Source: a virus. Taken from it: a DNA stretch of 32,142 nucleotides. The stretch lies in the IMG/VR virus record IMGVR_UViG_3300036772_000289, positions 1 through 32,142 of that record; one strand, given 5' to 3'. Shown here one piece after another: positions 4,275-31,979 of the stretch. Position numbers and translations under genes: made by a program. The stretch's first letter is position 1. Each line of letters begins with the position of its first letter. A model generated the notes under the pieces. That model was given only the letters and a program-made list of their open reading frames with translations, was not told the DNA's origin and did not search any database.

Positions 4275-4304
4275 TTGATTCACCAAAAATGCCTGTGCTA
4301 TGAT
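4275..4304 (+). promoter_or_regulatory. sigma70-type promoter of the rightward island
   Basis: TTGATT (4275-4280), an 18-base spacer and TATGAT (4299-4304). Transcription should start near 4311-4312, exactly at an ATG, so the first gene would be translated from a leaderless or near-leaderless message. This promoter points against the surrounding late operon. Confidence 0.6.
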
Positions 4305-4311
4305 GCGGCAC

Positions 4312-4500
4312 ATGCAAAACAGCTCAACCGACACTCGCCTCAATACAAAGCAAGTTGCCGCGCTATTGAAGGTGACGCCAACGACAGTGGCCAACTGGCG
4401 CAAGCAGAAGATCGGCCCGCGCTGGTATCGGCGAGTGCGGAAGGTCTTCTACTTAAAGGCCGATGTAGAGAACTGGGAATTCAGTAATCCGGGGGATTAG
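4312..4500 (+). CDS. small helix-turn-helix DNA-binding protein (excisionase/MerR-like)
   Basis: A 62-residue protein. LNTKQVAALLKVTPTTVANW (residues 10-29) is a helix-turn-helix of the HTH_17/excisionase type, followed by a basic wing-like stretch (GPRWYRRVRKVFYLKADVENW). ATGs at 4300 and 4303 are in frame but lie inside the predicted -10 element, so 4312 is preferred. It is the first gene of the rightward island and probably regulates it, by analogy with small phage DNA-binding proteins. An Xis- or Cox-like role is possible, but no integrase is in the window. Confidence 0.78.
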   Translation: MQNSSTDTRLNTKQVAALLKVTPTTVANWRKQKIGPRWYRRVRKVFYLKADVENWEFSNPGD

Positions 4501-4534
4501 CCCCCCTTGACATACGCCGGGCACAGGCCCACCT

Positions 4535-4720
4535 ATGCGCGCAGTGGCCAGAATGATCGCAACCGAGCTCAAGCTGCCTCGGGAACTTATCGAGAAGATC
4601 GACGAGTTTCGGGCCAAGCAGCCCATTAAGCCGACAAGGTCAGCGGCCATCCGATACCTGATCGATCTTGGCCTCGATCACGCCACCACACCTCACCGTA
4701 CCTCACCCAACGTCAAGTGA
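4535..4720 (+). CDS. ribbon-helix-helix (Arc/CopG-like) protein
   Basis: A 61-residue protein. IATELKLPRELIEKIDEFRA (from residue 8) followed by TRSAAIRYLIDLGLDHA matches the beta-strand, helix, helix layout of CopG/Arc/MetJ repressors. The start may be 4535 or the ATG at 4553 (MIATEL). A TTGACA lies at 4507-4512 but no convincing -10 was found. Its last dozen codons (TTPHRTSPNVK) are written by the first NNCAC array, so the gene's tail and the array overlap. RHH proteins such as plasmid omega and ParG bind contiguous short direct repeats, which makes this gene a candidate reader of the arrays. Confidence 0.75.
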   Translation: MRAVARMIATELKLPRELIEKIDEFRAKQPIKPTRSAAIRYLIDLGLDHATTPHRTSPNVK

Positions 4721-4741
4721 CATCACGCCACCTCACAACAC
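4677..4741 (+). repeat. pentanucleotide array A (NNCAC)n, 13 units
   Basis: Thirteen consecutive five-base units in one phase, nine with an exact CAC core (atCAC, gcCAC, caCAC, ctCAC and so on). Imperfect units are cgTAC, ccAAC, gtCAA and gtGAC. It covers the end of the RHH gene and stops just before the AAAGGA ribosome site of the next gene. The two leading bases vary while CAC stays fixed. The period is not a multiple of three, so the pattern is not dictated by protein coding. Confidence 0.85.
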
Positions 4742-4756
4742 GAAAGGATCATCCAA

Positions 4757-5362
4757 ATGCCATTATCAATCGTCACCGCGCACATTCATCTACGAAGTAA
4801 GGCCGCGTATACGCAGTCTCGCAAGTACGAAGAGGCAAAACTTGAAGGAGAGCAACCAGACGATTACGATCGCCGCAATTGGCGCAAGCATCTACACGTC
4901 AAGCAACACCACGATGGCCGTCAGACCGTGTTTATTCCTGGTCGCGCCGTTCACTTTTGTCTGATCGATGCCGCCAAATACTCTATGCGGAAGATTTCCG
5001 CAAACTACACGTGGACAAAGAAGTTTGAGTCCGGCATCGCAATCCCCGATGACCTTGACCTCGGAATTGACCCGGCGAAGGTTGATTTCATTGACATCAA
5101 CGCGCACTCAAACGGCAAGCGCGGATCGGCTTCCAGGGTTACGAGGCGATTGCCGATCATCCCGGCGTGGCAAGCCGATTTTGTTGCGATGATCCTTGAT
5201 CCAATCATAACTGAAGATGTTTTCCATGAAATGCTGGAAATAGGTGGGCTATTCATCGGCTTGGGCCAAAACCGTCCGCAGAACGGCGGCTCTTCTGGGC
5301 GTTTTGAGATTGTCGCCATCGATTGGAATGCTGCCCTACAGCCCGTCAGGAAGGCGGCGTAA
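4757..5362 (+). CDS. RAMP/Cas7-like candidate protein of the array island
   Basis: A 201-residue protein. Features suggesting the RAMP (Cas5/6/7) superfamily are an opening strand SIVTAHIHLRSKAAY; a VFIPGRAVHFCLIDAAKY block (58-75), comparable to the IPGSSLKGALR motif of Cas7-type proteins; and a late glycine-rich segment, GLFIGLGQNRP then NGGSSGRFEI (164-185), comparable to the terminal G-rich loop. Between them lie a conserved-looking INAHSNGKRG loop (114-123) and ILDPIITEDVFHEMLEIGG. I recall similar proteins of unknown function in other phages, but this is memory, not a search. No nuclease residues stand out, so nucleic-acid binding is more likely than catalysis. The gene lies between arrays A and B with an AAAGGA ribosome site. 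Confidence 0.72.
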   Translation: MPLSIVTAHIHLRSKAAYTQSRKYEEAKLEGEQPDDYDRRNWRKHLHVKQHHDGRQTVFIPGRAVHFCLIDAAKYSMRKISANYTWTKKFESGIAIPDDLDLGIDPAKVDFIDINAHSNGKRGSASRVTRRLPIIPAWQADFVAMILDPIITEDVFHEMLEIGGLFIGLGQNRPQNGGSSGRFEIVAIDWNAALQPVRKAA

Positions 5363-5375
5363 GCCCCACTACTTC

Positions 5376-5465
5376 GACGCAACACAACACGTCACGATAC
5401 CCTAACTCACGACACCAGACAACACCCCACGCCAATATACGACACCGCACTTCACGCCACGACAC
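5376..5465 (+). repeat. pentanucleotide array B (NNCAC)n, 18 units
   Basis: Eighteen five-base units in unbroken phase between the RAMP-like and winged-helix-like genes. Twelve have an exact CAC core. The rest differ by one or two bases in the core (gaCGC, gaTAC, ccTAA, caGAC, gcCAA, taTAC). The run gacgcaacacaacac at 5376-5390 is identical to 6031-6045 in array C. The array ends just before the AAAGGA ribosome site of the following gene, so it would form most of that gene's upstream untranslated RNA. Confidence 0.9.
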
Positions 5466-5488
5466 ATCCCCCGAGAAAGGAACCGGCG

Positions 5489-5998
5489 ATGCGTACCACC
5501 ATCAATTCCGCCGCAATCAGGGACACGACCCGCGCGATTGCCGACCTGTTTCACGCCGCCTCAGTGGATGAAGTTGTTTCACACGATCAGATCAAAGCCC
5601 TGATCCCAGCTGGTCTACAACATATCAGCCACTACATTTTCGCCCACAGGGCCTTTAAACTTCTTAACAAAGAACACGGACTCGTGTTCGCCACGGTGCC
5701 CCGCGAGGGATATCGTCGTATGCGGCACGTCACTGGCGCTCAGTACACGGTTGATAAAATGCTGAGAAGGACACGGCGGGTTTGTCGGAAGGGCCAAACT
5801 GTGGCGACAAGCGCGATCTCGTTTGCCAACGACGCTACGCCAAGCGAGCGTCGCCAAGTTTATCAGGGCATAAATCTAGGCGGTTTACTAGAGCATCTCG
5901 CGACCTTGAGGACGGCCAAGTCCATGCCAGAAGAACCGCCGCGACCGAAGCCAGACAACTTCTCTTGGCTACGTGAGATGATGGGCGGGCCAAACTAA
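5489..5998 (+). CDS. winged-helix-like protein of the array island, function unknown
   Basis: A 169-residue protein. The N-terminal part is helical (AIADLFHAASVDEVVSHDQI, then SHYIFAHRAFKLLNKEHG), followed by LVFATVPREGYRRM (about 66-79), which resembles the beta-wing and GYR end of winged-helix DNA-binding domains. The middle is strongly basic (KMLRRTRRVCRKGQ, 90-103). The C-terminal third is helical with a polar proline-rich linker. The AAGGA ribosome site lies directly after array B. It is probably a nucleic-acid-binding partner of the RAMP-like protein or the array; the fold call is tentative. Confidence 0.72.
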   Translation: MRTTINSAAIRDTTRAIADLFHAASVDEVVSHDQIKALIPAGLQHISHYIFAHRAFKLLNKEHGLVFATVPREGYRRMRHVTGAQYTVDKMLRRTRRVCRKGQTVATSAISFANDATPSERRQVYQGINLGGLLEHLATLRTAKSMPEEPPRPKPDNFSWLREMMGGPN

Positions 5999-6005
5999 TT
6001 ACCAT

Positions 6006-6155
6006 CACACTACACCGCACCGCACTTCACGACGCAACACAACACTACAACGCACCGCACGGCATGACACTTCACTTCACGACACAACACCGCACGACAC
6101 TTCACATTACCTCACGACACCACAACCCACGACACTTCACTTTACAACACAACAC
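6006..6155 (+). repeat. pentanucleotide array C (NNCAC)n, 30 units
   Basis: Thirty five-base units in perfect phase filling the whole space between two convergent genes. Twenty-four have an exact CAC core; the exceptions (gaCGC, taCAA, ggCAT, atTAC, caCAA, ttTAC) each differ by one base. The leading dinucleotide is far from random: aa, cg, tt and ga account for most units. From 6001 to 6155 the plus strand has only about 14 G residues, so a transcript would be C/A-rich and weakly structured. No terminator hairpin is visible inside it. Confidence 0.93.
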
Positions 6156-6158
6156 ACT

Positions 6159-7856
6159 TTAATGCCCTCCGCCGGGATGCCCGCGCCCGTGCTGAAAAAA
6201 TTCCGGATGTTCAACCATGAGTTTTTGCCGTTCTTCCTGGCGATGCTTCAGACGCCGCAGTTTCTGGTCCTTGTTCGGGAACGGCAGATCTTCGATTGCG
6301 TCCTCCGGCCCCAGCACTCCTGATTTTACGCCCCACGCAATCAGCTGGGCATGATCATCATGATAAATCGGCGAGGATGAGTGCGAATCGACCGCAATCT
6401 GCCGATCCTCTGGAAGCTGCGACAATAGAAAGTCCGTCTCGCCCTTGTCGGCGTCGGTCCAATAAACCGTGGCGTCTTTGGCTTGGACGATCGCCAAGGT
6501 ATCATCTGCGGCAGCGGCACACTGCCGCTCGATTAAGAGAGAGCGGTCGCGTAGCCGCGGGCTGCCGGTTTTCATCAGGGTGTCGGCATGGACGCCGGCC
6601 CGCACGCCAGGCTCTCCCTGGCCGCTCATGATCGGCGGAAAGCCCGTCGCGCGCTCCATTAGACCGATGATTTCCCCGATGATCGGGATCAGTTCTGGCG
6701 GCAGCGGGGGCGTGATATCCTTGACATCGGACCCGCCCGGCAAACCAATATAACCAGACTGTCGGAACTTCCCATAGAGCTCATCGGTAATGCCGTCATG
6801 GCCCGGGAAGGCGAGTATCCTGTCAACCTGGAGTCCTACTAGCCGCTTCGAATCCTCTAGGTGCGTGCTCAGCCAGTCCTGCAGCAGCATCAGATCGGTA
6901 ATCTCCGATCGCCCCCACACATAACCGGCGACGTAATTCGGTTGGATCATCGAGTACGGGTGCCGCTCGGGCACGAAGAGGTTGCAGTGCTTGAAGAGGG
7001 GAGCGACAAGGATATCCGGCTCGATCAATTGGATGGTCGTGTAATCCTCGCCTCCCCGCGCGTCGTCGCGGATATAAATCTCATGCATCGGATAGAGGTT
7101 GATGTTCGGTCGCGGCGACAGCGGGGTCATGTTGGGATCGTTGCCGAGGTTGACGATTCCGCCGGGGTTAGGCTGTGTGGCGTTTCGCAGACTCGTATCC
7201 AGGATCGCCGTCGACAAAACCTGATGCATGAAGGTCCGCGGGACGCCCGTGCGATCTTCCTTGTCGCCTTTGGCGAGAATCCTCTTATAGGTCCTCTCCG
7301 CATTGGGAAGGTTGCGGATGCGGCGCCACACTTCATGCCGGTTTAACCACACCGTCTCGACCAGCGCCTCCTGCTTGTCGAGATCATTTATCCCTTCATC
7401 ATAGACGCCGAAGGCCCACGGCGGCACCAATTGGCCGCCACGGTAATAATAGGCCCCGTCCGCGGTCTTGCCGGCGAGTTGTTTCAAGAGATAGGAGCCG
7501 TAGGTAAGCGCCTCCTTAACCCCAACTCCGAACAGGATGTCGATATTCTTGTTTTGCCATTCGAGTGATACGAGCCGGGCGGCCACGGCGCCTTTGTCTA
7601 ACCATTCTTGAGGATAGATGTTTTCGTAATTCATGCCAAAGCGCAGCTCAGTCGGCGAGAACAGGTGCGAGGCTGTTCTGTCTACGTGGCCATACATAAG
7701 ATTGGCGAGCGCCAGACCGCCCTTCGGCTTACCGGTCTCAACCCAGGTTCCGAACGACCGATAGGTGGAGGCTCGCGTGGCTTGCCCTTCGGTGCAGGCA
7801 TCGATGATTTCGAGCGCCATCTTTGTCAGGCGTTTTGCGTCGGTTGGCAATCTCAC
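6159..7856 (-). CDS. portal protein
   Basis: About 565 residues. The protein has the portal pattern: helical N-terminal region (ASTYRSFGTWVETGKPKGG), beta-rich clip/wing segment with AGYVWGRSEI, the long helix LLQDWLSTHLEDSKRLVGLQ (near 320-340), and a later helical region (LPPELIPIIGEIIGLMERAT, then RDRSLLIERQCAAAADDTLA). The portal is the dodecameric DNA channel at one capsid vertex. The open frame extends to 8063, but that part lies inside the upstream spike gene, so I prefer GTG at 7856; ATG at 7820 is the alternative. It ends on array C. Confidence 0.85.
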   Translation of the reverse strand: MRLPTDAKRLTKMALEIIDACTEGQATRASTYRSFGTWVETGKPKGGLALANLMYGHVDRTASHLFSPTELRFGMNYENIYPQEWLDKGAVAARLVSLEWQNKNIDILFGVGVKEALTYGSYLLKQLAGKTADGAYYYRGGQLVPPWAFGVYDEGINDLDKQEALVETVWLNRHEVWRRIRNLPNAERTYKRILAKGDKEDRTGVPRTFMHQVLSTAILDTSLRNATQPNPGGIVNLGNDPNMTPLSPRPNINLYPMHEIYIRDDARGGEDYTTIQLIEPDILVAPLFKHCNLFVPERHPYSMIQPNYVAGYVWGRSEITDLMLLQDWLSTHLEDSKRLVGLQVDRILAFPGHDGITDELYGKFRQSGYIGLPGGSDVKDITPPLPPELIPIIGEIIGLMERATGFPPIMSGQGEPGVRAGVHADTLMKTGSPRLRDRSLLIERQCAAAADDTLAIVQAKDATVYWTDADKGETDFLLSQLPEDRQIAVDSHSSSPIYHDDHAQLIAWGVKSGVLGPEDAIEDLPFPNKDQKLRRLKHRQEERQKLMVEHPEFFQHGRGHPGGGH

Positions 7857-7884
7857 GCGCGCACGGCTGACTCCATACCTTTCC

Positions 7885-10008
7885 TCAATACGCCGTCCAG
7901 GAATACGCCGCCTGCCCGATCGAGCAGGAGGAGGCGCAGGAATAGACCGTAGTTTTCGTCCCGGACAGAAGCGCTCCGCCATTGCTCGTCGCGTTGATGA
8001 CGGTGATGTAGCCAAGATCCGGATAAACTCCAGTGACGATATAGGAAACCGCACCGCCCCCATTGTTTACCGAGATTCCAAGGCCAGGAAACATCCATGA
8101 GAGAGTCTTGGCATCCAGATAGAGCGCATCCGATTGTCCTTTGTAGGACCACGTGACGGTTTCTCCTATGACCGAATCTGTGAGGTTCTGCCCCCAGCTG
8201 TAGCCTGGGCATGAGGCCGACCGCAGATAAAGATGCGTTAGCGCAGTCGTGTTCCAGTCCACCGACTTAAACACGGTCCTGCACGCAATCGGGGGATAAG
8301 AGCCGATCGCCCCGAGGGCGCCGCTGACTTCAGCGTAGAGTGTTGGGCTCAGATTCGGCGTGGTCCAAGGGCACGGCTCAAATCCGCAATAAGGAGAAGT
8401 CAACTCGCCTCTTGAGACGTTGACATTCCCCACGGCGCCGCTGGCAGTTATCCACGCGCCAGGAATGAAGTAATCAGTATCCCACGTACCGATGCCCCGC
8501 GCCTCAGTCTGAAACTGCCCATTACCCCCGAGTTGGCTATAGGCATATCCGCCGCTGTCATAAACCCTCGTGTTGAGCTGAAAGCCCGACAGCGCCGATC
8601 CATCGATCTCCCGAAATGGTTGAGTCTCGACGTTTATCGGCAAAGACGCTCCGTAATAACCACCCCGAAGCCTGATGTTTCCGATCCCGCCGGCTTCCTG
8701 GCCGATGAACGGAAACGACCTTTGACAGTAGAGTATCGGCAATGCCGCCCCAGGCAAGCTCGGGTCATAGTTGAAATACGGATTCCTGATCTCGTTCGTC
8801 ATGGCGCCAGACCCAGCGGCCTGCGCCATCAATAGCGAGCTGCACGCGACAGGATTCTCGACGTGGACGCCGTCTAATGTAATGCCCATCCCCTGCGCGA
8901 CGACGACTCGCTCGGTCGCATAAAGGGTAGTTGCCGCCGCCACTTCCGCCTGCATATCCGTCGTCGAGGTCAGATCGTTGATCCCATAGTTGGCAAATGC
9001 CCATGGTATCCATATCTGGAAAGTGCCGACATTTGTTCCCGAGTTCCAGGCGGTCATCGTTAGCGGGATGACACCAAAATGGCTGGTGATGACCGTATAG
9101 GAATTATAGACGGTATTTACGTACTGATCGGGCGAAGCGATCGTTCCAGTAAAGGTGTAGTCGAACCCATTGCCATCGGCAACTTTTGTGAATGAAGAGA
9201 CACTGGACAACCCAAATGATGCGCTCTGTCCGCTTGTTGCCGAGATGTTGCCGCCAAACACAGTGACTTGGCGCGACAGCTCCGAATCTATGCCAATCGT
9301 AGCCGTCAATGACGGCTCAACAACATCGTTTATATAGGCTTGTGATCCGGCGACCAAGATCCCATAATATCCGTTGTTCCCGGCTATCTTACGAAAGGTG
9401 TTGCTGTCGCTCAGGCAACACGCGGCGTTCGCGTCGGTCTTGTACAGCGCGTAAAAATTATTGACATAGGTGTTCTCGACAAGGTTGATGCTCGATCCGC
9501 CGCTACCGCCAGCAAGGCCGATCCCGACACCGGCATTCGATTGCTGACCGCGATACCCATTGCTCGGCCCGGTCACCTCAATGTCCGACACTCGCATCCC
9601 CTGACCGGTGCCGACTAGGAAAGCGATGCCGTTGTTGAATGTGGACCTTATTTGGCATCCCTGATGGTTGCCGGCAGCGGCGGCATCGCCGAAGAATGCC
9701 ATAGAGAACCCGAACATGGTCGGCGAGGCAAGGCTGGATCGAAGATTGCCCGGCGGATCGAGATATAGCGTGCTCGATGTTTTGTACGTGCCTGCCGGGC
9801 AATAGACTCCGGTGTACCCATTGTTGAACGCGTAATCGATGCACGCCTGGATCGCCGACGTGTCATCGGTCGAGCCATTGCCCGTGGCCGGGCCGCAGAC
9901 CGGATCCTTGATGCTGATCCAGTCGAGCGTAACATTGGCGGCTCGGGTTGGCGTACCGATCGCCATCGCCAGCCCCAGCGCCAAGAGAAATCTTAGCGCG
10001 GAACCCAC
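7885..10008 (-). CDS. pectate-lyase-like right-handed beta-helix protein, probable tail spike
   Basis: About 707 residues. After an N-terminal hydrophobic, signal-like segment comes NVTLDWISIKDPVCGPATGN, then STDDTSAIQACIDYAFNNG and GVYCPAGTYKTSSTLYL. This is the classic start of the pectate_lyase_3/phage spike fold (GDGVTDDTAAIQAAID, then PAGTY). The long middle consists of repeating short beta strands with N, G and S turns, as expected of a beta-helix. Such proteins bind or cut surface polysaccharide during adsorption. Start GTG at 10008 is preferred because GGA-type ribosome sequence lies five bases upstream; the upstream gene overlaps it by 16 bases. Cysteines are unusually frequent. Confidence 0.82.
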   Translation of the reverse strand: MGSALRFLLALGLAMAIGTPTRAANVTLDWISIKDPVCGPATGNGSTDDTSAIQACIDYAFNNGYTGVYCPAGTYKTSSTLYLDPPGNLRSSLASPTMFGFSMAFFGDAAAAGNHQGCQIRSTFNNGIAFLVGTGQGMRVSDIEVTGPSNGYRGQQSNAGVGIGLAGGSGGSSINLVENTYVNNFYALYKTDANAACCLSDSNTFRKIAGNNGYYGILVAGSQAYINDVVEPSLTATIGIDSELSRQVTVFGGNISATSGQSASFGLSSVSSFTKVADGNGFDYTFTGTIASPDQYVNTVYNSYTVITSHFGVIPLTMTAWNSGTNVGTFQIWIPWAFANYGINDLTSTTDMQAEVAAATTLYATERVVVAQGMGITLDGVHVENPVACSSLLMAQAAGSGAMTNEIRNPYFNYDPSLPGAALPILYCQRSFPFIGQEAGGIGNIRLRGGYYGASLPINVETQPFREIDGSALSGFQLNTRVYDSGGYAYSQLGGNGQFQTEARGIGTWDTDYFIPGAWITASGAVGNVNVSRGELTSPYCGFEPCPWTTPNLSPTLYAEVSGALGAIGSYPPIACRTVFKSVDWNTTALTHLYLRSASCPGYSWGQNLTDSVIGETVTWSYKGQSDALYLDAKTLSWMFPGLGISVNNGGGAVSYIVTGVYPDLGYITVINATSNGGALLSGTKTTVYSCASSCSIGQAAYSWTAY

Positions 10009-20538: not shown

Positions 20539-20616
20539 ATGAAAAGGCCCGGGTCGCCACCTCCTCTAAGCCGGAGACGCGGGGATGGTCCGCCAGTACA
20601 AGTCTGGCGCCGATGA
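20539..20616 (+). CDS. 25-residue proline/arginine-rich micro-ORF
   Basis: A tiny frame (MKRPGSPPPLSRRRGDGPPV, then QVWRR) at the front of the rightward transcript. Its stop lies inside the first copy of a repeated leader that carries the next gene's ribosome site, so it could be a leader peptide. No good ribosome site of its own. Weak call. Confidence 0.3.
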   Translation: MKRPGSPPPLSRRRGDGPPVQVWRR

Positions 20617-20635
20617 GCAGGAGCGAAACCCTATG
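20612..20635 (+). repeat. repeated leader L1, copy 1 of 3
   Basis: The sequence begins GATGAGCAGGAGCGAAACCC and ends at an ATG. Identical to 20837-20860; the first 17 bases recur at 21024-21040. It contains the AGGAG ribosome site nine bases from the start codon. At two of the three places the preceding stop codon lies in its first bases, so the unit looks like a mobile translation-restart cassette. Confidence 0.7.
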
Positions 20636-20830
20636 AACGATAATTGTTTATGCCTTAGCGTTTTGGAATGCGTTGCGGCGGGTAGCTGCAAACGCCACGC
20701 GATGGTGGAACGTGTGCTTGATCGGGTTGCGCGCGCTCTAGCACAGAGGCGAGATAGGGAGCGGCTCCAAAGAGAGTGCGATCTCCTAAACAAACTAGTA
20801 GGCGACAACGTTTTTTCCCCACCGGGTTAA
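20633..20830 (+). CDS. hypothetical small cysteine-containing protein
   Basis: 65 residues. MNDNCLCLSVLECVAAGSCK carries four cysteines near the N-terminus (CLC...C...C), followed by a long basic helix (ERVLDRVARALAQRRDRERL). The start is fixed by leader repeat copy 1. Function unknown; a DNA- or protein-binding accessory role is possible. Confidence 0.6.
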   Translation: MNDNCLCLSVLECVAAGSCKRHAMVERVLDRVARALAQRRDRERLQRECDLLNKLVGDNVFSPPG

Positions 20831-20836
20831 TAACCC

Positions 20837-20860
20837 GATGAGCAGGAGCGAAACCCTATG
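20837..20860 (+). repeat. repeated leader L1, copy 2 of 3
   Basis: A 24-base exact copy of 20612-20635 that supplies the ribosome site and ATG of the next gene. A third, 17-base copy at 21024-21040 begins inside the stop codon of that gene. Confidence 0.7.
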
Positions 20861-21025
20861 ATCGACCGTGATGCCGATATGCGCAAGCAAGGCTGGTACA
20901 AGCTGATGACGCCGCAACCGGCGAAGCGTCCAAGCGTACGCCAGCTTGCCTACAAAAAGGCGGCCGAAGCGGAGTTTGAGCGGCGAGCCGCAGAAGCTAT
21001 CGAATGGTGCAAGCGTTTTATCTGA
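20858..21025 (+). CDS. 55-residue helical protein
   Basis: MIDRDADMRKQGWYKLMTPQ, then PAKRPSVRQLAYKKAAEAEF and a terminal ERRAAEAIEWCKRFI. A basic, mostly helical small protein. The start is supplied by leader repeat copy 2 and the stop lies in copy 3. Not recognised. Confidence 0.58.
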   Translation: MIDRDADMRKQGWYKLMTPQPAKRPSVRQLAYKKAAEAEFERRAAEAIEWCKRFI

Positions 21026-21046
21026 TGAGCAGGAGCGAAAGCTGCT

Positions 21047-21124
21047 GTGGGCTTGAACGAGCGCAACGGGCCGCGCGGGACGGCCCTGAGCGGGCGACTC
21101 AGAGATGAGCCGACCAGTCCCTAA
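21047..21124 (+). CDS. possible 25-residue micro-ORF (GTG start)
   Basis: A short frame (MGLNERNGPRGTALSGRLRD, then EPTSP) beginning with GTG seven bases after the third leader copy (21024-21040). The only support is that each other copy of this leader precedes a gene. It may equally be non-coding. Confidence 0.22.
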   Translation: MGLNERNGPRGTALSGRLRDEPTSP

Positions 21125-23696: not shown

Positions 23697-24420
23697 GCAT
23701 GGCGGCAACGACGCCGCCATGGCCCGCATCGTTGCGGCCGGATCGCGCTTGGCCATTGCCGCCTTGACGCTTGGCGAGAGTACGGCAACGGTCTTTCCAG
23801 GTGAGTGACCAATCAACTCGTTTGACATTCTTTCCGCCTTCGTAACACCAGTAGTTGCGCCATTCCGGCAATAAGTCGTCAGGGTTCAGCCCACGCTCCT
23901 CGGCGTAGGTGCGGTCGCTTTCGTCCGGTTCCCAATCCTCAGGCAGCGTCGTCGCCTTTGGTTTGGGCTTCGCGCGCGCGGAGTCTGCGTCAGCAGACAT
24001 CCTCCTTTCTTCCTTTCTTTCTTCTTTCTTTCCTTCCTTATAGTTTGTATCGGGTGGTGTATCGGTTGTGTATCGGTTGTGTATCGGTTGTGTATCGGGT
24101 CCTGTATCGGCTAGGTGAATCGGTAGCTGATATTTGCTGTAATTACAGATGGTTATGATCGTGCATGCTGTATCGGTTGTGTATCGGATCATCTCCGCCT
24201 TCTGCGCGGCAGCCAACCATCGCTGTATCGCCGGGACGGACCATCGCCAAGCCATTGCCAAGAAGCGAAAAGACGTTCGAATCTGTCCGCGATCCAGCCC
24301 ATTGTGCGGCGCAAACGCTGCATTTTCGATGAGCCACACCCATGCCGCTCTACGGCAATACGGCTCACGCCCAAAGACCGCCTTATCATACCATCCCCGT
24401 TGCATGCGGTAGAAGCTCAC
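23653..24420 (-). CDS. O-like replication initiator (replisome organiser)
   Basis: 255 residues. The N-terminal part (YRMQRGWYDKAVFGREPYCR, then RRAAWVWLIENAAF) with the following RGQIRTSFRFLAMAWRW is the winged-helix start of a common phage initiator family. A repeat-encoded linker (about 100-145) with a lysine/glutamate-rich stretch separates it from a C-terminal domain ending DLLPEWRNYWCYEGGKN and WSLTWKDRCR. It should bind iterons and recruit helicase. GTG start at 24420 with AGGGGGA upstream. The iterons lie in the linker-coding DNA, as in lambda O. Confidence 0.8.
   Translation of the reverse strand: MSFYRMQRGWYDKAVFGREPYCRRAAWVWLIENAAFAPHNGLDRGQIRTSFRFLAMAWRWSVPAIQRWLAAAQKAEMIRYTTDTACTIITICNYSKYQLPIHLADTGPDTQPIHNRYTTDTPPDTNYKEGKKEERKEERRMSADADSARAKPKPKATTLPEDWEPDESDRTYAEERGLNPDDLLPEWRNYWCYEGGKNVKRVDWSLTWKDRCRTLAKRQGGNGQARSGRNDAGHGGVVAAMRELWLEENDGCLPH
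24003..24187. other. replication origin: TGTATCGG iterons plus polypyrimidine tract
   Basis: TGTATCGG occurs at 24046, 24058, 24069, 24080, 24091, 24103, 24169 and 24180, mostly 11-12 bases apart (about one helical turn), with near-copies at 24116 (TGAATCGG) and about 24223. Next to them, 24003-24039 is almost pure T/C on the plus strand (TTTCTTCCTTTCTTTC and so on), an easily melted asymmetric tract. Iterons plus such a tract inside the initiator gene is the lambda ori layout. Confidence 0.78.
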
Positions 24421-29787: not shown

Positions 29788-29972
29788 CGGACAGTGTGAT
29801 CGCTCTCGACACCACGCGCGCCGCAATCGAGGAGGCCCTCGATGCCGCCCGCGACCAACTGGCCGCCTTCGAGCATCAAAAATTCGCACGCCAAGATTGG
29901 ATCGGCATCACGCGGCGCCGGGTCTCGATCCTGGAAGCTCAACTCAGCGCATGGGATCGGGCGGCGGTATGA
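29784..29972 (+). CDS. small coiled-coil protein
   Basis: 62 residues: LDTTRAAIEEALDAARDQLA, then AFEHQKFARQDWIGITRRRV and SILEAQLSAWDR. Two helices likely forming a hairpin or dimer. Coupled by ATGA to the exonuclease gene, so it may assist recombination; inference only. Confidence 0.64.
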   Translation: MTDSVIALDTTRAAIEEALDAARDQLAAFEHQKFARQDWIGITRRRVSILEAQLSAWDRAAV

Positions 29973-31021
29973 ACAAGATCACTGCGGCAACTCCCAATGC
30001 CGCCAGTGAGGCGGGGCCGGAGACGGCGTACCCCCCCAGTCCCAATCCGGTCCCGCCGACCGAACAAGCCGGGCTTCCTATCTTTCAGGAGAGCTATCAC
30101 GGCGAGAGCGGAAACTCTATTCCCGAACATCCCAAGGGCATCCCTTTGGCCGAAAGAAGAAATGCACAGGAGTTACTGGCCCAAAATACCGCCCTCGGGA
30201 TCATCAAAAAGGATGCGGCGTGGCACGCCAACCGCCGGCTCGGGATCGGCGGATCTGACGCCAACAAAATCATGAGCGGGCGTTGGCTGGAGGTGTGGAT
30301 GGTCAAAACCGGCCGCGCCGAGGACGAGGACCTCTCCGATGTTCTCGCCGTTCAGATGGGCGTGGTGACTGAGGATTTGAATCTTGCTTGGTTCCAGAAA
30401 CAGACTAAGCGCGTAGTTGTTGGACGGAAGGCCGAGGTCAAGCATGCGTATTATAGCTTCATGCGAGCAGAACTCGACGGTGCGGTCTGGGAGCCCAATG
30501 CGATCGTTGAAGCGAAGTGGTGTGGCGCCTTCAACAAGATCGAGGAAATCGAGCAGCGCTACATGGCGCAGTGCCATCACAACATGCTGGTTTGCGGATA
30601 TGATCGCGCATTTCTTTCGGTCATTACCGGCAAACCGACCTACGAGCTTGTCGAGATCCGCCGTGACGACGATTACGCCGCGACACTACTGCAGTACGAG
30701 GAAGATTTCTGGCGGTATGTCGAGCGGGACGAAGCGCCGCCGGATCGCGAAAGCGTTGCGGCTCCGGTTAAACCGTCTCCGACAAGAATAGTGTCGATTG
30801 ATCTCGAAAATCCTGGATCTAATTGGGAATATTCGATAATATCTCCGGTCAACGAGTACGTCGACACTTTCGATGCCGCCAAAAAGAACGGCACAGCCCG
30901 CGATAACATTAAGTCGATGCTTCCTGACGATGTCAGTCTATGCCGCGTTGGTTTGGTTGATCTCAAGCGTGACAAGAGAGGATCTCTGACGATATCTTTG
31001 GAAAGGTTGCGCAATGTCTGA
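29969..31021 (+). CDS. YqaJ/lambda-exonuclease-type recombination nuclease
   Basis: 350 residues from MNKITAATPN. After a 75-residue disordered tail come NRRLGIGGSDANKIMSG (89-105), GVVTEDLNLAW (131-141, with the motif E) and MRAELDGAVWEPNAIVEAKW (165-184), where Asp170, Glu181 and Lys183 form the D...ExK active site of the YqaJ/lambda Exo fold. It resects double-stranded ends to make single strands for the annealase encoded next. The C-terminal third (PVNEYVDTFDAAKKNGTARD) is a separate helical domain. Confidence 0.85.
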   Translation: MNKITAATPNAASEAGPETAYPPSPNPVPPTEQAGLPIFQESYHGESGNSIPEHPKGIPLAERRNAQELLAQNTALGIIKKDAAWHANRRLGIGGSDANKIMSGRWLEVWMVKTGRAEDEDLSDVLAVQMGVVTEDLNLAWFQKQTKRVVVGRKAEVKHAYYSFMRAELDGAVWEPNAIVEAKWCGAFNKIEEIEQRYMAQCHHNMLVCGYDRAFLSVITGKPTYELVEIRRDDDYAATLLQYEEDFWRYVERDEAPPDRESVAAPVKPSPTRIVSIDLENPGSNWEYSIISPVNEYVDTFDAAKKNGTARDNIKSMLPDDVSLCRVGLVDLKRDKRGSLTISLERLRNV

Positions 31022-31979
31022 ATATCACGACGGAGAAACTGGCGAGGTTGTGGAGACGCCGCGCGTCTCTGATACGCGCGTGCAGCGCGGTGCACTGCTG
31101 TCGTCACCCGAGACCGCCGAAGTATGGGGCGCGCTCGTCGAGGCACAAGGGAAGATCGAGCCGCCACAGCGCACCAAAACCGCAAAGGTCAAGGGTCGCA
31201 CCAAGGCTGGAGTAGACTACGAGTATGAATATAAATACGCGCCGCTCGATGAAGTGCTCAACAAGGCGCGCGGACCCCTGCAAGAAGCCGGCCTCGGGTT
31301 CCAGCAATATCTTGCGTCGCGCGGTAGTCAGTCCGTGGTGTGCACCGTTATATTCCACAAGTCGGGGCAATGGACGGCGGTTGATTATCCCATCTTTTAC
31401 GACGCCAGCAAGGGCGCGCAGGGCTTTGCGTCCGGCGTAACCTACGCTAGGCGCTACGGGCTCACGCTCGCGCTCGGAATCGCCCCTGAGGATGACGACG
31501 ACGCCAATGTGGCCGATTCCCAACCCGCAACCATATCGGAACGGTCGAAAGGCGTAACCCGCGCCGCCGCGCCGCGCCCTATAACAACGGCGATCCATCC
31601 CGCTACATCTGGCGCCGCTGGCTCATCTACTGGTAACGGCGCCCAGCTCGAATGGATACCCAAATTTCTCGCCCGCAAGAGCTACGAGATCGACGCGCAG
31701 AAGGCCGGCGGCTGGTCAGCCTTCGAAAGGCTTTACTGCGCGATCGCCGATGCGGCGGACGATCTCGACCAGCTCATGAAGCTCGACGATGACAACAAGC
31801 AGCAGTGCGTCGAGTTTTCGCGGGCAGTGAGGCCGGCCGTCTATGACCGCTTTCGCGAGCACGTAAAGGCCAATGCCCATCGTTTGGCGCCGACGCCGTT
31901 CGTCGAGGAATCCGATACGCCGTCCGTCCTCGATCAAATGGGGGAGGAGCGGCGGCAGAGTCAGGGGGGGGATGTTTGA
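31014..31979 (+). CDS. erf: ERF-family single-strand annealing protein
   Basis: 321 residues. The ERF core is visible: EYKYAPLDEVLNKARGPLQE (72-91), AGLGFQQYL, then VVCTVIFHKSGQWTAVDYPI and GFASGVTYARRYGLTLALGI followed by acidic APEDDDDAN. It anneals complementary single strands with the exonuclease encoded immediately upstream (eight-base overlap). The C-terminal region after a T/A/P linker (EWIPKFLARKSYEIDAQKAG) is a separate helical domain. Confidence 0.87.
   Translation: MSEYHDGETGEVVETPRVSDTRVQRGALLSSPETAEVWGALVEAQGKIEPPQRTKTAKVKGRTKAGVDYEYEYKYAPLDEVLNKARGPLQEAGLGFQQYLASRGSQSVVCTVIFHKSGQWTAVDYPIFYDASKGAQGFASGVTYARRYGLTLALGIAPEDDDDANVADSQPATISERSKGVTRAAAPRPITTAIHPATSGAAGSSTGNGAQLEWIPKFLARKSYEIDAQKAGGWSAFERLYCAIADAADDLDQLMKLDDDNKQQCVEFSRAVRPAVYDRFREHVKANAHRLAPTPFVEESDTPSVLDQMGEERRQSQGGDV

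What the first reader, a model, noticed from the sequence alone, without database searches (positions are those of the whole stretch)
4757..5362. Phage protein with RAMP (Cas7-like) signatures outside any CRISPR locus
VFIPGRAVHFCLIDAAKY resembles the IPGSSLKGAL element of Cas7-type proteins. The late GLFIGLGQNRP and NGGSSGRFEI resemble the terminal glycine-rich loop, and there is a typical opening strand. No Cas1/2, Cas6 or palindromic CRISPR repeat is in the window. A stand-alone RAMP protein next to pentamer arrays would be a new context for the fold.
Basis: partly seen in the sequence, partly recalled or inferred. Interest (0 to 1): 0.85.

Follow-up and report, generated by a model that had tools for sequence, protein, structure and literature searches.

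The report
Phage RNA-guided VIPR cassette, altered code
The predicted CRISPR-like protein is real: this phage carries a complete-looking VIPR cassette, a recently described CRISPR-related RNA-guided system, and its guide repeats are built on a CAC scaffold instead of the published GGY scaffold.

Summary
The ORF at 4757-5362 (+, 201 aa) is a genuine RAMP. An AlphaFold model (pLDDT 91) matches Csm3/Cas7 at Z 12-13, and profile searches link it to the solved SUSP1 Vipr protein (PDB 36pp). It is therefore the vipr gene of a VIPR system, the phage-encoded RNA-guided DNA-binding system described in preprint PMC13142463 (April 2026). The "pentamer arrays" are the expected guide RNA arrays: three tracts of 13, 19 and 31 pentamers, each a conserved triplet plus two hypervariable bases. 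A vap homologue (5489-5998) follows. The cassette (4501-6158) is absent at the same site in a 96%-identical relative.

New here: in the window's lineage the triplet on the vipr strand is not GGY but CAC (CAC, CGC, CKC, CGA or GTT in relatives); this lineage is a separate, fully supported branch of the Vipr tree. Whether a published type already covers this could not be checked (supplement not readable).

Under the published 1-nt-skip rule, nine units of the third array match 17/18 bases, in codon frame, at the 3' end of the portal gene of three sister phages and 16/18 of its own (11 of 6000 shuffles as good; suggestive). No expression data exist.

The parts
4501..6158 (+). VIPR cassette as an insertion between the stop of an HTH gene (4300-4500, +) and the stop of the portal gene (6159-8063, -)
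   Evidence: Sister contig L091 (95.7% identical on both flanks) has portal stop and HTH stop directly abutting, without the cassette; L090 carries an unrelated ~1.3-kb insert at the same place.
4535..4720 (+). Small ribbon-helix-helix protein, probable regulator of the cassette; its 3' end overlaps array A
   Evidence: PHROG transcriptional repressor E 3.9e-7, Pfam RHH_1 E 0.0028 just below cut-off. Role inferred. An Arc-family gene also lies upstream of vipr in phage Medea1.
4679..4743 (+). Array A: 13 pentamers CAC/NN; NN = GC CA CT CG CT CC GT GT AT GC CT AA GA; ends at the Shine-Dalgarno of vipr
   Evidence: searches (window region 4672-4749; 0 of 2000 shuffles), sequence.
4757..5362 (+). 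vipr: RAMP-fold (Csm3/Cas7-like) protein, 201 aa
5373..5467 (+). Array B: 19 pentamers; NN = GA AA AA GT GA CC CT GA CA AA CC GC TA GA CG TT GC GA AT
5489..5998 (+). vap: accessory protein, 169 aa
   Evidence: Homologous to the gene downstream of vipr in L070-L086; profile-profile match to the accessory gene following vipr in LESphi2, prophiBWHA-1, wV8, LittleE and Medea1 (probability 98%, E 2e-13; PHROG 5926 for two of these).
6003..6157 (+). Array C: 31 pentamers; NN = CA TA CG CG TT GA AA AA TA CG CG GG GA TT TT GA AA CG GA TT AT CT GA CA CC GA TT TT AA AA AC; contains a 35-nt (7-pentamer) internal duplication
6196..6221 (-). Imperfect own-genome match of array C units 20-28 (16/18 bases) at the 3' end of the phage's own portal gene, in codon frame
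   Evidence: 17/18 in sister phages L090, L091, L092.

Best explanation
Window 4501-6158 is a VIPR system carried as an insertion cassette by a phage. The Vipr protein (4757-5362) should polymerise along an RNA made of triplet/NN pentamers, one RAMP subunit per pentamer, using the G-loop and thumb as Cas7/Csm3 does. The conserved triplets are held by the protein. The NN dinucleotides are exposed and pair with double-stranded DNA, leaving one unread base between pairs, and so block transcription of the targeted gene. The three arrays (A, B, C) are the guide RNAs, and Vap (5489-5998) assists DNA binding. The most likely purpose is competition with related phages: part of array C fits the 3' end of the portal gene of sister phages better than the phage's own. 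Shown here: homology, fold, arrays, partner gene, insertion, and lineage-specific triplet. Inferred from the published type II system: RNA binding, DNA reading and repression. Suggestive only: the portal target.
For: Vipr homology: P0002 (LESphi2 homologue) vs PDB 36pp E 1.8e-41; profile with the window protein included E 3.1e-51; profile of the window's own lineage alone E 1.1e-5; profile-profile between the two lineages 99%, E 7.9e-18. Fold: pLDDT 91.4, Csm3/Cas7 Z 12-13. Arrays flank vipr in nearly every homologue examined. Vap partner. Empty site. Portal match only at skip 1, 11/6000 shuffles as good. Positive control for the code on held data: a LESphi2 array (GGC/NN) has nine consecutive exact, wobble-aligned units in the related prophage contig L010. 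Published mechanism: PMC13142463.
Against: The triplet is CAC, not the GGY read by the characterised protein. No structured 3' tail was found on the window arrays (folds no better than shuffles). Arrays B and C (19 and 31 units) exceed the published 9-16. The window protein alone hits 36pp only at E 0.29. The portal match is found post hoc and covers 9 of 31 units. No target was found for arrays A and B. No expression data.
Confidence: 0.85

Rival explanations
1. The pentamer tracts are DNA-level binding sites (operators or iterons) for the ribbon-helix-helix or Vap protein, and are not transcribed guides; the RAMP protein acts without them.
For: Array A lies at the start of the cassette and overlaps the RHH gene; RHH and Vap are predicted DNA binders.
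Against: The two variable positions are hypervariable, whereas operators are conserved at all contact positions. The same alternation surrounds nearly every vipr homologue examined with lineage-specific triplets. Published vrRNAs co-purify with Vipr (PMC13142463).
Confidence: 0.07
2. A stand-alone RAMP used as an anti-CRISPR decoy or RNA-binding protein, unrelated to the arrays.
For: RAMP fold without other cas genes.
Against: Vipr family membership, conserved arrays and conserved partner gene.
Confidence: 0.04
3. The guide RNA is transcribed from the opposite strand, so the scaffold triplet is GTG (GYG in relatives) rather than CAC (CRC).
For: No strand-specific transcript data. The structural genes on both sides of the cassette lie on the minus strand, so read-through could cross it. 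The target pattern is the same for either strand, so decoding cannot decide.
Against: In type II loci the arrays share the vipr strand and the invariant tail is at the 3' end. In 44 arrays of this lineage the near-constant AA units (61% at the second-last unit, 10% inside) sit at the vipr-strand 3' end, and the arrays are interleaved with plus-strand genes.
Confidence: 0.2
4. The match between array C and portal genes is coincidence.
For: Shuffle P about 0.002 for one of three arrays tried, found after a scan; upstream units do not continue the match.
Against: Matches appear only at skip 1, in codon frame with the wobble base skipped, in three sister phages at 17/18; the three are homologous, so they are not independent.
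Confidence: 0.4

Closest known systems
VIPR type II (Escherichia phage SUSP1 / Pseudomonas fulva prophage; PMC13142463, PDB 36pp)
   Same: RAMP protein of about 200 aa, vap gene downstream, intergenic pentamer arrays made of a conserved triplet plus hypervariable NN, phage-borne, no cas genes.
   Different: Triplet CAC on the vipr strand instead of GGY; the lineage forms its own branch (100/100 support, branch length 2.1); no recognisable structured tail on the window arrays; arrays up to 31 units.
Csm3/Cas7 RAMP subunits of class 1 and type VII CRISPR complexes
   Same: Fold and glycine-rich loop (Z 12-13); one subunit per short guide segment is the likely arrangement.
   Different: No CRISPR repeats or spacers, no Cas1/2/6 or other cas genes found; 11-12% sequence identity; pentamer rather than hexamer periodicity.
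PHROG 4652 / PHROG 5926 (unknown-function phage families)
   Same: Window vipr hits PHROG 4652 (E 3.9e-8); the two families are adjacent in LESphi2 and prophiBWHA-1.
   Different: The window vap is too divergent to hit PHROG 5926 directly; linked only by profile-profile comparison.

Membership tests
VIPR (as a whole) | Vipr protein: small RAMP homologous to the SUSP1 Vipr protein | tested here: met
   Lineage profile vs 36pp E 1.1e-5, combined profile E 3.1e-51, hhalign 99%, fold Z 12-13 to Csm3/Cas7.
VIPR (as a whole) | Intergenic tandem pentamers alternating a conserved triplet with hypervariable NN | tested here: met
   Three arrays, 0 of 2000 shuffles each.
VIPR (as a whole) | Accessory vap gene next to vipr | tested here: met
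VIPR (as a whole) | Arrays transcribed as vrRNA and bound by Vipr | not testable with these tools
   No RNA data for this phage.
VIPR (as a whole) | DNA targets read as NN with a 1-nt skip | tested here: inconclusive
   Array C vs portal genes of sister phages, 17/18 over nine units, 11/6000 shuffles as good; arrays A and B no credible target.
VIPR type II | Triplet is GGY | tested here: not met
   CAC on the vipr strand (GTG on the other) in all three arrays. The paper allows 'a related consensus' for other types (fig. S17, not readable here), so this excludes type II, not VIPR.
VIPR type II | Invariable structured 3' tail after the repeats, 9-16 repeats | tested here: not met
   Window arrays run into the next Shine-Dalgarno or the portal stop; folds not better than shuffles; 13, 19 and 31 units.
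VIPR types I, III-VII | Type-specific Vipr phylogeny, vap and array architecture | not tested
   Supplementary figures S16-S21 could not be read (0 look-ups of supplements allowed).
Class 1 CRISPR-Cas | CRISPR repeat-spacer array plus further cas genes | tested here: not met
   No spaced repeats of CRISPR type; no Cas match in PADLOC or Pfam for the proteins tested.

The most novel reading that the evidence does not exclude
Vipr lineages have evolved different scaffold triplets (GGY, CAC/CGC, CGA, GTT, GCA), so VIPR codes are mutually orthogonal; the window's CAC system is a weapon against sister phages that targets their portal gene while sparing its own by two mismatches.
Probability: 0.35. 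Interest if true: 0.8.

Novelty: new variant of a known kind. Interest (0 to 1): 0.62.

Why it matters
VIPR is proposed as the ancestor of CRISPR RAMPs, and its characterised members use GGY scaffolds. A deep lineage, including prophages of alphaproteobacteria, with different triplets would show which part of the code is set by the protein, and would offer naturally orthogonal programmable DNA binders of about 200 residues. The polymorphic insertion next to a portal gene that one of its own guides resembles is a natural case for testing kin competition between phages.

Tried and rejected
Single-sequence AlphaFold of P0001 gave pLDDT 32 and was discarded. Single-protein scan of viral contigs with P0001 found nothing; alignment queries were needed. 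Exact search of array A units 2-10 in viral contigs: no hit. An exact nine-unit hit of array C in L089 is rejected as chance: flanking units do not match. Array A vs 199 Hyphomicrobiales genomes gave two 3-mismatch hits, one in frame in a tyrosine integrase; a second search of 385 Alphaproteobacteria gave 12 two-mismatch hits, none in an integrase and no more than the reversed-pattern control, so the integrase lead is dropped. A guide of L085 hit one homologous gene, apparently a membrane transporter, in three genomes at 2-3 mismatches, not a phage gene, treated as chance. Three 31-nt repeats at 20610-21052 look like hammerhead ribozyme cores but precede start codons with AGGAG and have no Rfam support: repeated ribosome-binding regions. 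The skip-3 hits in the all-against-all scan look like unmasked arrays matching each other. Manatee Spring phages MW202825/MW202753 share gene order but lack the cassette.

Full report
Observation. The ORF 4757-5362 exists as described and encodes 201 aa. It has no Pfam or PADLOC match and one PHROG match, phrog_4652 of unknown function (E 3.9e-8).

Identity. Homologues occur in phages of Pseudomonas (LESphi2, Medea1), E. coli and Salmonella (Felix O1 group), Mycobacterium, Gordonia and Listonella, and in many uncultivated viruses. The LESphi2 homologue matches PDB 36pp, "SUSP1 Vipr protein", at E 1.8e-41. A profile that includes the window protein matches it at E 3.1e-51. A profile built only from the window's own lineage (window plus L070-L086) still finds it at E 1.1e-5 as the only significant hit, and the two lineages match each other at 99% probability, E 7.9e-18. 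With an alignment of 35 sequences AlphaFold gives pLDDT 91.4, pTM 0.85. Foldseek and VIA-align place it with Csm3 and type VII Cas7 subunits (E about 1e-6; Z 12-13). The structure library ends on 8 April 2026 and 36pp did not appear among the matches shown, so no structural comparison with Vipr itself was made.

What VIPR is. The only paper found (PMC13142463, bioRxiv 2026.04.26.720920) describes VIPR as a phage-encoded RAMP (Vipr), a vap gene, and guide RNAs of GGY/NN pentamers. The NN pairs read double-stranded DNA with one skipped base, usually the codon wobble position, and binding represses transcription of competing phages. Seven types exist; all use GGY/NN "or a related consensus". The supplement could not be read.

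Anatomy in the window. Reading on the plus strand: RHH gene 4535-4720, array A 4679-4743, vipr 4757-5362, array B 5373-5467, vap 5489-5998, array C 6003-6157. Each array is a run of CAC plus two variable bases, far from chance (0 of 2000 shuffles for each). Arrays fill the gaps between genes and end at the next Shine-Dalgarno, or, for array C, at the portal stop. Their folds are no better than shuffles. Array C contains a 35-nt internal duplication, so it has probably grown by whole pentamers. The Vap protein has homologues downstream of vipr across the lineage and matches the accessory proteins that follow vipr in the GGY loci at 98% probability.

A lineage with its own triplets. A period-5 scan of homologous loci gives, on the vipr strand, GGY around the LESphi2, wV8, Medea1, Trine, LittleE and prophiBWHA-1 genes, and instead CAC (window, L070, L079, L080), CGC or CKC (L072, L073, L076, L078, L082-L085), CGA (L071) and GTT (L081) around the window's relatives; phiHSIC has GCA. 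In a maximum-likelihood tree of 27 Vipr proteins the two groups are separated with 100/100 support and a branch of 2.1 changes per column (bootstrap rough). In 44 arrays of the window lineage the second-last unit is AA in 27, against 10% AA inside; the array starts show no such bias. Arrays therefore have a fixed end at the vipr-strand 3' side, where type II RNAs carry their tail. This favours, but does not prove, transcription on the vipr strand.

A mobile cassette. Sister contigs of the phage were found through the portal protein. L091, 95.7% identical on both flanks, has the portal stop directly followed by the HTH gene's stop with no cassette. L090 (94% portal identity at DNA level) has an unrelated insert at that point. 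More distant phages with the same gene order also lack it. In LittleE and phiHSIC the gene also sits within the structural module on the opposite strand.

Targets. Guides were decoded with the 1-nt-skip rule and compared with shuffled unit orders. As a positive control on held data, a LESphi2 GGC/NN array has nine consecutive exact units, skip base on the wobble position, in the related contig L010. For the window, array C units 20-28 (TT AT CT GA CA CC GA TT TT) match 17/18 bases in the 3' end of the portal genes of L090, L091 and L092 (FMIEHPEFF / LMLEHPEFF) and 16/18 of the phage's own (LMVEHPEFF, 6196-6221 minus). The match is in frame and appears at skip 1 only. Within the three sister contigs 11 of 6000 shuffles do as well. 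It was found after a search with three arrays and covers part of array C, so it is suggestive. Array A and B targets remain unknown; an apparent integrase hit did not survive a larger search.

Verdict. What is not in the main text of the paper is a deep lineage with non-GGY triplets, tail-less arrays of up to 31 units in this phage, an insertion polymorphism, and a possible kin target. Whether the six VIPR types other than type II already include this triplet is the main open point for novelty.

Noticed in passing
L079:6983-7356: Four near-identical CAC/NN blocks separated by a shared linker (CACCGGTATTGAGCTTATGAGATTTATCGCCACCACACC...): an array apparently expanding by duplication of whole guide units.
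   Followed up: partly
L070:5870-5930 and 6679-6735: The same hairpin-forming linker (GGTCCC...GGGAGACC) follows the first array both upstream and downstream of vipr; a candidate tail in a CAC-type relative.
   Followed up: partly
L002:5406-5484 and L010:2199-2225: LESphi2 GGC/NN array decodes to nine exact consecutive units in a small ORF upstream of vipr in a related prophage contig.
   Followed up: partly
window 20610-20640, 20835-20865, 21022-21052: Three copies of CYGATGAGCAGGAGCGAAA, two of them just before an ATG: repeated ribosome-binding regions that mimic hammerhead cores.
   Followed up: yes
window 24046-24110: Tandem 11-bp repeats (TGTATCGGTTG) next to a CTTT-rich tract (24003-24039); possible replication or regulatory region.
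   Followed up: no
window 29897-31979: RecE/YqaJ-type exonuclease followed by an ERF-type annealing protein: a phage recombination pair.
   Followed up: no
L081 (IMGVR_UViG_3300022664_000223, 236 kb contig): A large-phage Vipr homologue (33% identity) with several GTT/NN pentamer arrays, a further triplet variant.
   Followed up: no
L090:7753-9077: At the VIPR insertion site a sister phage carries a different insert of about 1.3 kb, so the site between portal and HTH gene may be a hot spot for cassette exchange.
   Followed up: partly
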